This document shows positions 20,274 to 32,523 of a stretch of 64,000 bases of DNA, piece by piece. Source of the stretch: Caldicellulosiruptor morganii (GTDB lineage Bacteria > Bacillota > Thermoanaerobacteria > Caldicellulosiruptorales > Caldicellulosiruptoraceae); the NCBI RefSeq assembly GCF_026810225.1, contig NZ_CP113865.1, forward strand, positions 473,001 through 537,000, read 5' to 3'. Under the pieces are notes generated by a model. The model saw only the letters and a program-made list of their open reading frames with translations, did not search any database and had not been told where the DNA came from. Position 1 is the first letter of the stretch, and every line of letters starts with the position of its first letter. The position numbers and the translations under genes were made by a program.

Positions 20274-20337
20274 TAATCTTCTGAGTTTTAGGATGTAACC
20301 TTATGGTCATCTTCACCTGACACTTTTTTTTTATTTA

Positions 20338-20513
20338 AGCGCCAGGACCTCTGGAAGTTATAGCGCTGCTTTATTTTGCGCATTTTTCCAGAGGTTGACG
20401 AGGACCGGGGAGGATCGAGGTTGTCGGCGGGTGCCCCGGCGGGGTTTTGCCTTTTTCCTCGTAACTTTCTGCTACAAACCCCGGAAGGTAACTTCCAGGA
20501 CAAAAGCAGAAAG
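20338..20513 (+). ncRNA. glmS ribozyme (glucosamine-6-phosphate-activated)
   Basis: Self-cleaving riboswitch in the glmS leader. The cleavage motif AAGCGCCAGGACC places cleavage between A20338 and G20339. P1 is formed by ACCTCTGGAA and TTCCAGAGGT. The conserved core GACGAGGACCGGGG and GTCGGCGGGTGCCCCGGCGG are present. P4 (CTTTCTGCT/AGCAGAAAG) and P4.1 (GGAAG-GTAA-CTTCC) close the 3' part. Glucosamine-6-phosphate acts as cofactor, and cleavage destabilises the glmS message, giving feedback control. Confidence 0.96.
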
Positions 20514-20598
20514 AAAAAGGCTAAAGGCTTTTTTATTTGTTACGGGTGTGTGGCAGCTTGGAAATTAAATATAAGGCTCAGGAGGAGGCAAAAAAACA

Positions 20599-28096: not shown

Positions 28097-29473
28097 TTAT
28101 ATACCAAATACCTCTTTTACAACCTCTTTTAACTCCTCATCACTGATTGATGTATTTCTGCCATTTTCATATTGTTTGTCTACCCACTCTTTTACTTTTA
28201 AGACTCCTGGGTCTTTTTTGTCAACCTGAATGTCAATGCCGCTGTCTTTAAAATACCTGTTTATCCAGACCACAATTCCAGCAATGCCTGAGTAAGCATC
28301 AATTATGACCTTGGGGGGTCTTCCCAGAATTTTCCCCGTATCAAATATATTGTAGATTTCCTCATCCTTCATAAGCCCATCTGCATGAATCCCGGCTCTT
28401 GTTGCATTGAAGTTTTCACCAACAAAAGGTGTCATTGGTGGAATTTCATAACCTATTTCTTTTTTGAAATACTCGGCAATCTCAGATATCACGGCAACAT
28501 TCATGCCATCTGCCGAACCACGAATCTGAATATATTCCATCACCATCGCTTCCAGAGGAGTGTTGCCGGTTCGCTCACCTATTCCCAGAAGGGATGTGTT
28601 TACCATTGAAGCACCGTAAAGCCATGCCATTGTGGAGTTTATCACAGCCTTGTAAAAGTCGTTATGACCGTGCCACTCAAGCCACTCGGATGGCACTTCA
28701 CCATAGTTCACAATCCCGTAGATTATCTGGGGCACACTTCTTGGAAGAGCCACCCCTGGAATTGGAGAGCCAAGCCCCAGTGTGTCACATGCTCTGATTT
28801 TAACAGGCATTTTTGCCTCTTTGGAAAGCTTCATAAGCTCATTTATAAATGGCAGAACAAATCCATAAAAGTCGGCTCTTGTGATGTCTTCAAAGTGGCA
28901 GCGCGGTATAATTCCTGCCTCAAGTGCTGATGATACAATCTCCAGGTATTGCTTCATTGCCTGGCTTCTTGTCATTTTGAGCTTTTTGAAAATGTGGTAG
29001 TCCGAGCATGAAACCAGAATCCCTGTCTCCTTGATGCCAAGGCTTTTTACAATCTCAAAATCTTCTTTTTTAGCTCTGATCCAGGCAGTAACCTTTGGAA
29101 AGTCATAACCTTTTTCCAGGCACTTCAAAACTGCCTCTTTGTCCTGTTTTGAGTACACAAAAAACTCTGTGTGGAGAATAACGCCGCTTCCATTGTCAAG
29201 CTGGTGCAGGTAGTCATAAATCCTGCAGATTTGATCAATGGTGTAGGGCGATCGTGATTGCTGACCGTCTCTGAAGGTTGTGTCGGTAATATAAAGCCTT
29301 TCTGGCACGTTCATGGGCACAATTCTGTGGTTGAAAACAAGCCTCGGCACTTCATTGTACGGATAGATGTTTCTGAAAAGATTTGGCTCCTGAACATCTC
29401 TGAACTGGTACTCAATCTCAAGAATGTGGGTCTTTGAATTAAATTTGACATTCATAAAAACAAACCTGGTCAT
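28097..29473 (-). CDS. HMGL-like acyltransferase, probable Re-citrate synthase
   Basis: Member of the isopropylmalate/homocitrate synthase superfamily, 458 residues. The TIM-barrel metal site is seen in ITDTTFRDGQQSRSPYT and HGHND, with CHFEDITRAD, RACDTLGLG and GERTGNTPLEAMV between. It lacks the C-terminal leucine-sensing domain of LeuA. The pattern (NLFRNIYPYNEVPRLVFNH) matches the clostridial group that includes Re-citrate synthase, which makes citrate from oxaloacetate and acetyl-CoA for glutamate synthesis in anaerobes. Homocitrate or citramalate synthase are alternatives. ATG 29473 has no ribosome site; ATG 29455 (MNVKFN) may be the true start. The TnpB-like element abuts its 5' end. 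Confidence 0.75.
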   Translation of the reverse strand: MTRFVFMNVKFNSKTHILEIEYQFRDVQEPNLFRNIYPYNEVPRLVFNHRIVPMNVPERLYITDTTFRDGQQSRSPYTIDQICRIYDYLHQLDNGSGVILHTEFFVYSKQDKEAVLKCLEKGYDFPKVTAWIRAKKEDFEIVKSLGIKETGILVSCSDYHIFKKLKMTRSQAMKQYLEIVSSALEAGIIPRCHFEDITRADFYGFVLPFINELMKLSKEAKMPVKIRACDTLGLGSPIPGVALPRSVPQIIYGIVNYGEVPSEWLEWHGHNDFYKAVINSTMAWLYGASMVNTSLLGIGERTGNTPLEAMVMEYIQIRGSADGMNVAVISEIAEYFKKEIGYEIPPMTPFVGENFNATRAGIHADGLMKDEEIYNIFDTGKILGRPPKVIIDAYSGIAGIVVWINRYFKDSGIDIQVDKKDPGVLKVKEWVDKQYENGRNTSISDEELKEVVKEVFGI

Positions 29474-29475
29474 CT

Positions 29476-29815
29476 AAACTGTGCAAAACTGCACAAGCTT
29501 AGACGGCTGGGGTATTTGTAGTCCGCCATTTCAAGACTTTCCCAGCCCCAGCAGGCGGTTTTTGGGAAAGTCATAGCCCCTACCCCAAGAAGCAGGAACT
29601 TGCGCCGATTTCCGGTCCCCCCACTTGCCCTGAAACCAATATCCGCTTCAGGACAGACATATCTCGCAATACCCTGTCAGGGGAGAGTGGCGTTACCACC
29701 GCTACCCTGAGAACTCGCCAGAGATTGTAGCTCTCGCTACAGCTAATCGCACTTGTTCCACCCAGAGGTGCAAATAGCCTCCCTGGCTCACTCCCAGGGC
29801 TTTGTATCTTACTCA
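29476..29815 (-). ncRNA. Candidate structured RNA (omega-RNA-like) at the tnpB 3' end
   Basis: This GC-rich stretch contrasts with its surroundings and folds repeatedly on the minus strand: CCCTGG/CCAGGG (29781-29799), TGTAGC-GAGA-GCTACA (29726-29741), TCAGGG/CCCTGA (29677-29710) enclosing GTGG/CCAC, and CCTGAA/TTCAGG. Beyond the stop codon, ACTTTCCC/GGGAAAGT, CCGCC/GGCGG and GGCTGGG/CCCAGCC interleave as pseudoknots. TnpB families encode a guide-scaffold RNA overlapping the gene's 3' end and right end of the element, which fits. Transcription and processing are inferred, not shown. Confidence 0.5.
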
Positions 29816-31058
29816 TTACATACTCTATCTCTTTGATCTGCCTTTTTTTCAAGTTGGCATTTTTAACTTCTTTTCTTACATACTCCTTCAGCTCTTCTAA
29901 ACTACTGGTGTCAAGTCTGCTAAGAAGCTCCATGTAGTTAGCAGGTATCCTCTCTTTTTTCCCAAGTCCTCTTCTTGCTATCACATATGCGCTTGCAATA
30001 TCTTTGCTTATCATAAACTGCGGTGCAAACTTTAGCATCCCTATCACCGATGTGTACGCAGGATTTACTTCTATAACCTCTATCCCTTCTCGTTTTGCTA
30101 AAATCCTGATTTTGTAAAGAAGCGACCTGTAGCTGAAAAAGTGCCTTATCCGTCTTGATTTTCTGCCCGAAAAGTCACCTCTTGTTCCTTTGTCTTTTAT
30201 ATTCAGCCTTTCTATCACAATAGCTTTTCTTTTCTCTTTTGCAATCTTCACAATCTCATGTGCATACTGCCATCTGTAATACTCTCTTCTGTCAGAGGTT
30301 CCACTTTCAAGCTCTGGCATTGGAATCTTGCCATAGCTTATAAACTGTCCGCTCCTGTCCACCTCTACCCATGCCATGTGATTTGGATATGCATTTGTAT
30401 CTATACCTATAGCACCGTTTTCTCTGGTGATTTCTATCGCCGGAAAGAGTTCTTCTACTGAAAAGTAAGCATACACATTCCCATTCTTGAGTTTTAGCTC
30501 TACCGAATAAGGCACTCCAAGGGCAGCAATCTCCTGTAAAATTTGTCTTCTATCTTTGTCTTTCTTATAACCGGCTGATAATCTTGCAAATACATATTTT
30601 CTATCTCCTATATTTATCCTCAAAAATGTGCCACTTTTATTTACCACAATCCTTGTGTTCAAGTTTCCTTTCTTGCTTCTATCTCCTCTTGAATATAAAT
30701 TCCCTTTCCTTTTTTCCTGCCACTCAATCTTGAGCTTTTTATAAGGCTTTCCATTTATATGCCGCTTTTTGAGCTTTTCAAAAAGCGGCCTGCCGCCAAA
30801 GATAGCTTTCCTCGGGTCTTCCCCTCTTTGCTTGCAGGACTCTAAAACAGCCTTTGCTTTCATTATTGCATCATCTACATACCTTGAGTTCAAATCAAAA
30901 ATCCCTTGCAGTTCTCTTTTGAGGCTATTTCTATCAAAGCCTTCTAATAGCCTTTTGTATGCAAATCTCATGCAAGATGACCATCTTCTCATAAGCTCCA
31001 ATGTCTTTTGCCTGTCTTCATAACTTTCAAAAATCAGCTTAGCCTGAACTGTTATCAA
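29580..31058 (-). CDS. tnpB: TnpB-like RuvC nuclease lacking the zinc ribbon
   Basis: Divergent TnpB (IS200/IS605 OrfB) protein. RuvC motifs: first Asp in IGIDTNAYPN, Glu in IVIERLNIKD, third Asp in MISKDIASAYVIARRGLG. The four-cysteine zinc ribbon normally between the second and third motifs is absent; the span reads NPAYTSVIGMLKFAPQF instead. TnpB proteins are RNA-guided DNA nucleases that help retain their transposon. The frame runs to 492 residues, but the last about 75, after YVMSKIQSPG, are low-complexity in character and coincide with the structured RNA, so they may not be a folded domain. Start TTG 31058 lies 7 bases after GAGGTG. No TnpA accompanies it. Confidence 0.8.
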   Translation of the reverse strand: MITVQAKLIFESYEDRQKTLELMRRWSSCMRFAYKRLLEGFDRNSLKRELQGIFDLNSRYVDDAIMKAKAVLESCKQRGEDPRKAIFGGRPLFEKLKKRHINGKPYKKLKIEWQEKRKGNLYSRGDRSKKGNLNTRIVVNKSGTFLRINIGDRKYVFARLSAGYKKDKDRRQILQEIAALGVPYSVELKLKNGNVYAYFSVEELFPAIEITRENGAIGIDTNAYPNHMAWVEVDRSGQFISYGKIPMPELESGTSDRREYYRWQYAHEIVKIAKEKRKAIVIERLNIKDKGTRGDFSGRKSRRIRHFFSYRSLLYKIRILAKREGIEVIEVNPAYTSVIGMLKFAPQFMISKDIASAYVIARRGLGKKERIPANYMELLSRLDTSSLEELKEYVRKEVKNANLKKRQIKEIEYVMSKIQSPGSEPGRLFAPLGGTSAISCSESYNLWRVLRVAVVTPLSPDRVLRDMSVLKRILVSGQVGGPEIGASSCFLG

Positions 31059-31151: not shown

Positions 31152-31180
31152 ATTATACCTTTTTGCATTGTTATTCTCAA
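31152..31180 (-). promoter_or_regulatory. Promoter of the TnpB-like gene
   Basis: On the minus strand TTGAGA (31180-31175) and TATAAT (31157-31152) are separated by exactly 17 bases. It begins 11 bases after the riboswitch aptamer, so the TnpB-like gene does not need transcription through the riboswitch. Confidence 0.65.
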
Positions 31181-31190
31181 CTGTTGTGAA

Positions 31191-31335
31191 CCTCCCTTTC
31201 AAAGCTTCGGGGGTTAGCTGACGGGTTCGGGCAGAAAGGGATCTTTGCCCTACAAGGCAAAACTTGCCTTGATTCACCCCAGAAAGTCTGGGTCCCCCCT
31301 ATCCTGTGGATTTTGCCACAGGAATTCAGCTCATT
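31191..31335 (-). promoter_or_regulatory. Cyclic di-AMP riboswitch (ydaO/yuaA class)
   Basis: Read on the minus strand, the aptamer has GAGCUGAAUUCC, the CUGUGG/CCACAG hairpin, GGACCCAGA with UCUGGGGUGAAUC, a GGCAAG/CUUGCC-type hairpin, AGGGCAAAGAUCCCUUUC and the diagnostic CCCGAACCCGUCAGCUAAC near the 3' end. These are the conserved parts of the ydaO aptamer, which binds two c-di-AMP molecules and usually switches genes off. No terminator or sequestered start follows it. The next gene on the strand is the TnpB-like gene with its own promoter, then the citrate-synthase-like gene. Confidence 0.93.
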
Positions 31336-31401
31336 TAAATTTAATTTTTTATTATGCTTTTTATCATACCAGAAAAGAAGCAGTTTTGCAAGAAAGTATG
31401 T

Positions 31402-32523
31402 TCAAACCTTCACAAGCTCATATTCCAAACTTCCAAGCCCAATTTCCTGTGCATGTTTTAATGCTACCTGCCAGTCTGTGTCAGGGTGGATACTTTTGAA
31501 CCTGTCTATTTTGCCATCAACCTCAATGTGTTTTGCCTTTTCAAGCACACAGCCGGCCGGGGTGAATGTGGAGCTGTTTACAAGGTCAACACATGCTTTA
31601 TCCAGTGCAACAGGGTCGAACGATGCAGCAATACCAATGTCGGGCGCAATGGGAATATCATTGTGGGACCAGCAGTCACAGTCAGGAGATATGTTCATTA
31701 TAAAGTTTATGTGAAAATTGGGTTTGTCTTTTAAAACTGCATATGCATACTCGGCAATCTTCTCACTTGCAATTGATGCTGCCTCATCCCATCTTACAGT
31801 TGCTGCTTCAAACTGGCAAACAGCAACGCACTGACCGCACCCGACACACTTTTCATAATCGATAACTGCTTTCTTTTTCTCATTGAGAGCAATTGCAAGC
31901 TGTGCACAGCTTTTGACACACATTCCACAGCCAACACACTTTGAAGTTTTTATAACCGGTTTTGAAGATGAATGCATAAAAAGCTTACCACCGCGCGAGC
32001 CAGACCCCATACCAATATTTTTGATAGCACCGCCAAAACCTGTCATCTCATGCCCTTTGAAGTGGTTCATGGAAATCACAATGTCAGCATCGGCTATTGC
32101 AGAGCCTATCTTTGCTTTCTGTGTATGCTTTAAGTTCACTTCAATTTCTCTGTATTCTGTTCCTTTAAGTCCGTCTGCAATTATAACATGGCAGCCCAGA
32201 GTTAACGGATTGAACCCATTTTCATAGGCAGCCTGAAGATGGTCAACTGCATTGCTTCTTCTTCCGGTGTAAAGTGTATTTGCATCTGTTACAAACGGTT
32301 TTCCACCGAGGTCTTTTATAAGCTTTACGATCCTTGCCACATAATTTGGTCTGATATAAGCAAGATTTCCCGGCTCACCAAAATGAACCTTGATAGCAAC
32401 AAACTTGTTTTTAAAATCGATTGTTTCAATCCCTGCTTTCTTCACAAGATTTTCAAGCTTATCAAGCATATTATACCCGGGTTTGGTTTTGAAGTCTGTA
32501 AAATAAACCTTTGATCCAGCCAT
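31402..32523 (-). CDS. DUF362 protein with two 4Fe-4S clusters
   Basis: Cytoplasmic DUF362-family protein of 373 residues. The N-terminal part has VAIKVHFGEPGN and FVTDANTLYTGRR, with MNHFKGHEMTGFGGAIKNIG in the middle. Two ferredoxin motifs follow: CVGCGMCVKSCAQLA and CVGCGQCVAVCQFEA. The family is common in anaerobes and is thought to act in electron transfer, but no reaction is established. The gene is transcribed toward the c-di-AMP riboswitch 67 bases downstream and has no clear terminator before it. Confidence 0.85.
   Translation of the reverse strand: MAGSKVYFTDFKTKPGYNMLDKLENLVKKAGIETIDFKNKFVAIKVHFGEPGNLAYIRPNYVARIVKLIKDLGGKPFVTDANTLYTGRRSNAVDHLQAAYENGFNPLTLGCHVIIADGLKGTEYREIEVNLKHTQKAKIGSAIADADIVISMNHFKGHEMTGFGGAIKNIGMGSGSRGGKLFMHSSSKPVIKTSKCVGCGMCVKSCAQLAIALNEKKKAVIDYEKCVGCGQCVAVCQFEAATVRWDEAASIASEKIAEYAYAVLKDKPNFHINFIMNISPDCDCWSHNDIPIAPDIGIAASFDPVALDKACVDLVNSSTFTPAGCVLEKAKHIEVDGKIDRFKSIHPDTDWQVALKHAQEIGLGSLEYELVKV

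What the first reader, a model, noticed from the sequence alone, without database searches (positions are those of the whole stretch)
31191..31335. c-di-AMP riboswitch with no expression platform, cut off by the TnpB-like element
The ydaO aptamer is intact, yet no terminator hairpin or sequestered ribosome site follows. Instead a complete TTGAGA-17-TATAAT promoter starts 11 bases later and drives the TnpB-like gene. The element seems to have landed directly behind the aptamer and separated it from its target.
Basis: partly seen in the sequence, partly recalled or inferred. Interest (0 to 1): 0.68.

Follow-up and report, generated by a model that had tools for sequence, protein, structure and literature searches.

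The report
Riboswitch cut from gene by transposon

Summary
The aptamer is real and complete (RF00379, 89.2 bits, window 31341-31187, minus strand). The separation is real: all 11 congeners lack the element, and there the aptamer runs straight into an HMGL/isopropylmalate-synthase-like gene, probably Re-citrate synthase. "No expression platform" is wrong. The Shine-Dalgarno (SD) sequence GGGAGG is part of the aptamer's 3' tail, and tail and loop form the pseudoknot seen in ydaO crystal structures. The pairing covaries between riboswitch copies, so this is a translational OFF switch, not a truncated one. An IS607-type tnpB element inserted at the GG of that SD, giving GAAAGGGAGG|element|TTTGTTTTTATG. 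The SD stayed with the aptamer; the gene kept only a weak CCAGG. The TTGAGA-17-TATAAT promoter belongs to the element (29 of 30 left ends). The wider finding: this element family splits SD from start codon almost everywhere. GGAGG abuts 26/30 left ends, and 26/28 right ends are followed within 4-14 nt by an ORF start, including thrS, gyrA and dnaN. The pattern recurs in a second bacterial family. Published IS607-TnpB TAMs (AGGAG, GAGGG) are SD-like; I found no paper making the link. Loss of c-di-AMP control in vivo is inferred, not measured.

The parts
31363..31391 (-). Riboswitch promoter, TTGCAA-17-TATGAT; the same kind of promoter lies at this place in several sister genomes
   Evidence: 9/12 match with TG extension; sister sequences
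31187..31341 (-). c-di-AMP (ydaO, RF00379) aptamer, complete
   Evidence: 89.2 bits; all genus-invariant columns intact
31234..31241 (-). Pseudoknot loop strand UCCCUUUC
   Evidence: pairing changes on both sides in class-3 copies (CCUUCUUG/CAAGAAGG) and in the crystallised ydaO RNA (CUCCUUCG/CGAAGGAG)
31191..31200 (-). Pseudoknot tail GAAAGGGAGG, which contains the Shine-Dalgarno sequence GGGAGG (31196-31191): the translational expression platform
31191..31192 (-). GG crossover dinucleotide at the left junction
   Evidence: empty-site comparison; IS607 rule from PMC6188088
29465..31190 (-). IS607-type tnpB element, 1726 bp, without tnpA; right end ...ATGACCAGG
31152..31180 (-). Element-borne promoter TTGAGA-17-TATAAT
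   Evidence: present in 29 of 30 left ends
29580..31058 (-). tnpB-like gene, 492 aa; GIDTN, VIERL and SKDIAS motifs of a RuvC D-E-D site
   Evidence: TIGR01766 69 bits and TIGR01765 75 bits, both above cut-off
29465..29800 (-). Right end; presumed guide-RNA scaffold (reRNA) overlapping the tnpB 3' end; the presumed guide would read into the host leader from 29464
   Evidence: inference from the IS607 TnpB literature (PMC11061315, PMC10711439); no Rfam match
28097..29455 (-). Severed target gene, HMGL/isopropylmalate-synthase-like (452 aa from its native ATG), probably Re-citrate synthase
   Evidence: no Si-citrate synthase in the genome
29456..29473 (-). New in-frame upstream ATG supplied by the right end (ATGACCAGGTTTGTTTTT-ATG) plus weak SD remnant CCAGG
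   Evidence: SD energy -12.7 to -3.7 kcal/mol
31402..32523 (-). Upstream neighbour, DUF362 / 4Fe-4S protein; its sequence also lies upstream of the aptamer in several sister genomes

Best explanation
This is a translational c-di-AMP OFF riboswitch that has been cut off from its gene. Ancestrally (shown by comparison) the aptamer's 3' tail carried the SD of an HMGL-family gene, with the start codon 7-10 nt further on. With c-di-AMP bound, the aptamer pseudoknot ties up the SD and blocks translation (mechanism inferred from conserved pairing, from crystal structures, and from the translational C. glutamicum ydaO switch). An IS607-type tnpB element recombined at the GG of that SD (junctions shown). 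The complete SD stayed with the aptamer and the start codon moved 1.7 kb away, behind the element's CCAGG end. The riboswitch can now regulate at most a 13-codon TTG-started ORF inside the left end. The gene should be transcribed from the element's promoter and translated weakly, independent of c-di-AMP (inferred). The insertion is not a freak: this family's target, GGAGG, is the SD sequence itself, so its insertions routinely split SD from start codon. They are tolerated even in front of essential genes, presumably because a sense-oriented promoter and an SD remnant are supplied.
For: Aptamer: 89.2 bits. Eleven congeners have aptamer-GGGAGGU-N(7-10)-start of the HMGL gene and no element. The pseudoknot pairs in all 31 genus copies examined, in the sister genus and in the crystallised RNA, with changes on both strands between classes. 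Exact empty-site arithmetic: GAAAGGGAGG + TTTGTTTTTATG. Ten near-full element copies in this genome, two with IS607-type tnpA (Resolvase + MerR domains). GGAGG at 26/30 left ends; a start codon of an ORF of at least 60 aa 4-14 nt after 26/28 right ends (21 ATG; GGAGG baseline in the window 19% ATG, p=2.5e-10). Second empty site at thrS, CAGAAGGAGGAGCATACGTAAGATG. Host genes include thrS, lon, nadC, panD, ybaB, gyrA, dnaN. Same pattern in a second family: 15/19 left ends, 14/17 right ends. SD binding energy falls from a mean of -11.0 to -4.8 kcal/mol. The genome encodes a c-di-AMP synthase.
Against: No expression, binding or transposition data exist here. The aptamer shows no decay, so a remaining function is not excluded. 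Only one genome of this species is held, so fixation is unknown. Part of the SD enrichment comes from selection removing insertions inside genes. The target gene's enzyme activity is inferred.
Confidence: 0.86

Rival explanations
1. The riboswitch has been adopted by the element and now regulates tnpB.
For: The aptamer is undecayed, has its own promoter, and no terminator separates it from tnpB, so read-through transcripts would carry it.
Against: Only translational control is present and the SD is about 130 nt from the tnpB start. Nearly every copy of the element carries its own promoter, and tnpB has its own SD-like AAGAGGTG. None of 20 other copies scanned has a riboswitch in front of it.
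Confidence: 0.07
2. One reading: an aptamer that never had, or has lost, an expression platform.
For: No minus-strand terminator follows.
Against: The SD inside the pseudoknot tail is conserved in 12/12 class-2 copies, and class-3 copies use the same arrangement with a different, still complementary, sequence.
Confidence: 0.03
3. The element's insertion silenced the HMGL gene, which is now effectively dead and about to decay.
For: The SD is reduced from -12.7 to -3.7 kcal/mol; a 71%-identical paralogue exists elsewhere in the genome.
Against: The ORF is intact and 96-97% identical to orthologues. Insertions of the same design sit in front of thrS, gyrA and dnaN, which must be expressed.
Confidence: 0.12
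4. SD targeting is only a by-product: the recombinase needs GG, and insertions inside genes are removed by selection, leaving SDs as the commonest tolerated G-rich sites. (A rival to the general rule, not to the events at this locus.)
For: IS607 itself prefers only (G)GG (PMC6188088); GGAGG is SD-enriched in this window too.
Against: A plain GG rule would not readily give GGAGG in 26/30 junctions. Published IS607 TnpB TAMs are AGGAG or GAGGG (PMC11061315), an actual sequence preference.
Confidence: 0.3

Closest known systems
ydaO/kimA c-di-AMP riboswitch of Bacillus subtilis (RF00379)
   Same: Same aptamer and same loop-tail pseudoknot.
   Different: B. subtilis uses a terminator. Here the SD is inside the pseudoknot tail (class 2), and the gene has been moved away by an insertion.
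Corynebacterium glutamicum nlpC c-di-AMP riboswitch (PMC9960051)
   Same: No terminator; translational control shown with reporters, with a proposed CTCC/GGAG pseudoknot over the ribosome-binding site.
   Different: Controls a cell-wall peptidase. Here it controlled an HMGL-family enzyme and has been disconnected.
IS607-family elements with RNA-guided TnpB (ISFba1 and relatives, PMC11061315; IS607, PMC6188088)
   Same: Crossover at GG without target duplication, TnpB, and an AG-rich TAM (AGGAG or GAGGG) next to the left end.
   Different: TnpB is 492 aa and scores below the guided_TnpB cut-off; there is no Rfam match to a known guide RNA; this copy lacks tnpA. The match of the target to Shine-Dalgarno sequences was not discussed in the papers I could search.
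Tandem Na+/c-di-AMP riboswitches controlling ablA, and eam osmolyte genes (PMC9337991)
   Same: c-di-AMP control of beta-amino-acid osmolyte synthesis; in this genus another ydaO copy precedes a glutamate 2,3-aminomutase-like gene.
   Different: Here a second ydaO copy controlled the probable citrate synthase that would feed glutamate.

Membership tests
c-di-AMP riboswitch (RF00379) | Covariance-model score above gathering, full length | tested here: met
   89.2 against 38 bits, positions 1-134
c-di-AMP riboswitch (RF00379) | Loop-tail pseudoknot | tested here: met
   7-10 pairs in all copies, covarying between classes and with the crystallised RNA
c-di-AMP riboswitch (RF00379) | Binds c-di-AMP and controls an adjacent gene | not testable with these tools
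   binding needs in-line probing; adjacency is lost in this genome but met in 11 congeners
IS607 family | Serine recombinase with N-terminal MerR-type HTH (tnpA) | tested here: met
   met for longer copies of the same element in this genome, although tnpA appears interrupted there; the window copy itself has lost tnpA
IS607 family | Insertion at GG without target-site duplication | tested here: met
   empty sites here and at thrS: one GG before, a GG at each end after
RNA-guided TnpB nuclease | RuvC-type TnpB domain with D, E, D residues | tested here: met
   TIGR01766 69 bits, cut-off 32; motifs
RNA-guided TnpB nuclease | NCBIfam guided_TnpB (NF040570) at curated cut-off | tested here: not met
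   48.9 against 100 bits; so I call it TnpB-like, not a proven guided nuclease
RNA-guided TnpB nuclease | reRNA/omega RNA and cleavage at TAM plus guide | tested here: inconclusive
   AG-rich motif adjoins left ends; no Rfam RNA match; cleavage not testable
Re-citrate synthase | HMGL-type synthase in an organism lacking Si-citrate synthase | tested here: met
   PF00682; PF00285 absent
Re-citrate synthase | Close similarity to a biochemically verified Re-citrate synthase, or enzyme activity | not tested
   no verified sequence could be fetched here; a 71% paralogue in the same genome is an equally good candidate

The most novel reading that the evidence does not exclude
A lineage of IS607-type tnpB elements homes on Shine-Dalgarno sequences. 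Its target motif is the SD, its presumed guide reads the start-codon region, and every insertion puts the gene under the element's promoter with an SD remnant. The insertion therefore strips whatever 5'-leader control the gene had, including riboswitches, while sparing essential genes.
Probability: 0.5. Interest if true: 0.68.

Novelty: new variant of a known kind. Interest (0 to 1): 0.52.

Why it matters
It gives a clean natural experiment. One genome has lost a c-di-AMP riboswitch's grip on a probable citrate synthase, while its 11 sisters keep it. In the same lineage c-di-AMP also seems to control glutamate 2,3-aminomutase, so the pair points to c-di-AMP control of glutamate and beta-glutamate osmolyte supply. 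It also shows that a TnpB element family whose target resembles the SD can sit in front of essential genes. That raises a testable question: have RNA-guided transposons settled on translation start sites as safe harbours, rewiring leader-based regulation as a side effect?

Tried and rejected
Rfam scan of the element for a known guide RNA or group I intron: nothing, so it is not an IStron by that test. IS605-type (Y1 transposase) placement was considered first because of end hairpins, then rejected because the longer copies carry a serine recombinase with a MerR HTH. Direct sequence match of TnpB to solved structures: none. Riboswitches in front of other element copies: none upstream (one SAM riboswitch lies downstream in L047). 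ydaO near HMGL homologues in 20 more distant genomes: none, so the linkage is confined to this family of bacteria as far as tested. Identification of Re-citrate synthase by comparison with the verified C. kluyveri enzyme could not be done: that genome was not among the loci returned. A protein alignment of TnpB copies failed on coordinates and was not repeated because the motif table was enough. Two primary papers (Nelson 2013, Li 2007) are not held. A notional fusion of the riboswitch SD to tnpB was rejected: the only ORF in reach is 13 codons. A first attempt to cut out the aptamers by a regular expression returned nothing; the alignment replaced it.

Full report
1. What is there. The minus strand carries, in order: a DUF362/4Fe-4S gene (32523-31402), a promoter TTGCAA-17-TATGAT (31391-31363), a full-length c-di-AMP aptamer (31341-31187; RF00379, 89.2 bits), a TTGAGA-17-TATAAT promoter (31180-31152), a tnpB-like gene (31058-29580), and an HMGL/isopropylmalate-synthase-like gene whose native start is at 29455. 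The genome is one contig of 2.48 Mb.

2. The empty site. All 12 genomes of the genus, this one included, have three ydaO copies. Sorted by neighbourhood, the copy orthologous to this one reads, in the 11 others, aptamer - GAAAGGGAGGT - 7 to 10 nt - start codon of the HMGL gene, with no element. Here the left junction is GAAAGGGAGG|TTCACAACAG and the right junction GACCAGG|TTTGTTTTTATGAATG. Joining the flanks over one GG gives GAAAGGGAGGTTTGTTTTTATGAATG, the sequence found in sisters L018 and L025. So this is an insertion in this lineage, with crossover at GG and no target duplication, as published for IS607 (PMC6188088).

3. The expression platform. In this class the platform is the aptamer itself. 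The tail GAAAGGGAGG contains the SD and pairs with the loop UCCCUUUC. Class-3 copies in the genus use CCUUCUUG/CAAGAAGG, again with the SD in the tail and an ATG just after it. The crystallised ydaO RNA (sequence in PMC5393176) has CUCCUUCG/CGAAGGAG. Class-1 copies have the same pairing but go on to a terminator-like hairpin with a U-run. Pairing kept through changes on both strands supports the pseudoknot. Translational control by a ydaO riboswitch has been shown in C. glutamicum, with a proposed pseudoknot over the ribosome-binding site (PMC9960051). That ligand binding turns translation off here is inference. The window aptamer keeps every column invariant among its orthologues.

4. The element. 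Ten near-full copies exist in this genome and many more in the genus. Longer copies carry tnpA with a MerR HTH and a resolvase domain, which makes this an IS607-type element; the window copy has lost tnpA.

5. The general rule. Of 30 left ends, 26 abut GGAGG. Of 28 right ends, 26 are followed after 4-14 nt by the start of an ORF of at least 60 codons (21 ATG). GGAGG sites in the window have such an ATG in 14 of 73 cases (binomial p = 2.5e-10). Thus nearly every insertion lies between SD and start codon and points the same way as the gene. Host genes include thrS, lon, nadC, panD and ybaB in this genome, and gyrA and dnaN in congeners. The thrS empty site was checked directly. The same arrangement occurs in a second family of the class: 15 of 19 left ends by my count after setting aside seven internal false matches, and 14 of 17 right ends. 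Part of the bias toward SDs must be survivorship, because insertions inside genes are selected against. The GGAGG preference itself agrees with TAMs measured for IS607 TnpBs, AGGAG and GAGGG (PMC11061315). Searches found no paper linking this to Shine-Dalgarno sequences; the library is partial.

6. Consequences. Computed SD/anti-SD energy falls from -12.7 to -3.7 kcal/mol for the HMGL gene and from a mean of -11.0 to -4.8 across 24 insertions. What remains is a CCAGG remnant plus the element promoter. Since essential genes bear such insertions, expression must continue. For the riboswitch gene this predicts constitutive, weaker translation without c-di-AMP control. A further oddity is an in-frame ATG supplied by the right end, which would add six residues to the protein.

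7. What was controlled. The genome lacks Si-citrate synthase and has a c-di-AMP synthase. In the same genome the class-1 ydaO precedes a gene resembling glutamate 2,3-aminomutase (likeness judged by eye to the sister-genus protein). In the sister genus a single ydaO precedes an apparent operon of glutamate 2,3-aminomutase (TIGR04368, 644 bits, just under its 650 cut-off) and the HMGL gene. Beta-glutamate is an osmolyte; Na+ riboswitches are reported with eam, and a tandem Na+/c-di-AMP pair controls ablA (PMC9337991). Re-citrate synthases are HMGL-family enzymes often misnamed homocitrate or isopropylmalate synthase (PMC12016533). I therefore read the severed gene as a probable Re-citrate synthase feeding glutamate; a 71% paralogue is an equal candidate.

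8. Verdict. Observation partly confirmed, interpretation partly supported. The locus is an ordinary riboswitch caught by an element with an unusual taste for ribosome-binding sites. The second point is the interesting one.

Noticed in passing
L001 1501-3023; L106 638-3601: A second ydaO copy in this genome precedes a gene resembling glutamate 2,3-aminomutase; in the sister genus one ydaO heads an aminomutase-HMGL pair. This suggests a c-di-AMP regulon for beta-glutamate osmolyte synthesis.
   Followed up: partly
L044, L055, L065 (match from 1501) and single places in other genus genomes: A solitary ~66-nt sequence resembling the element's right-end hairpin is conserved in most genus genomes, and in the three inspected it lies between the same two genes. 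One of these genomes (G010) has no TnpB match. Remnant or domesticated guide-like RNA; unexplained.
   Followed up: partly
L036, L041, L042, L043: The tnpA reading frames in the two longer element copies of this genome appear interrupted, so the element may no longer move by itself here.
   Followed up: no
window 29473-29456: The element's right end supplies an ATG in frame with the HMGL gene, extending the protein by six residues; L038 and L046 show similar in-frame right-end starts.
   Followed up: partly
window 31191-31140: The orphaned SD now lies 10 nt before a TTG in the left end, opening a 13-codon ORF; most left ends keep similar spacing because the TTG is part of the -35 box.
   Followed up: no
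window 20327-20522 (+) and 59088-58959 (-): A glmS ribozyme and an FMN riboswitch also lie in the window, both well above their gathering scores.
   Followed up: no
L003 1501-2624: The class-3 ydaO copy precedes an SH3/NlpC-P60-like cell-wall hydrolase gene, with its SD inside the pseudoknot tail like class 2.
   Followed up: partly
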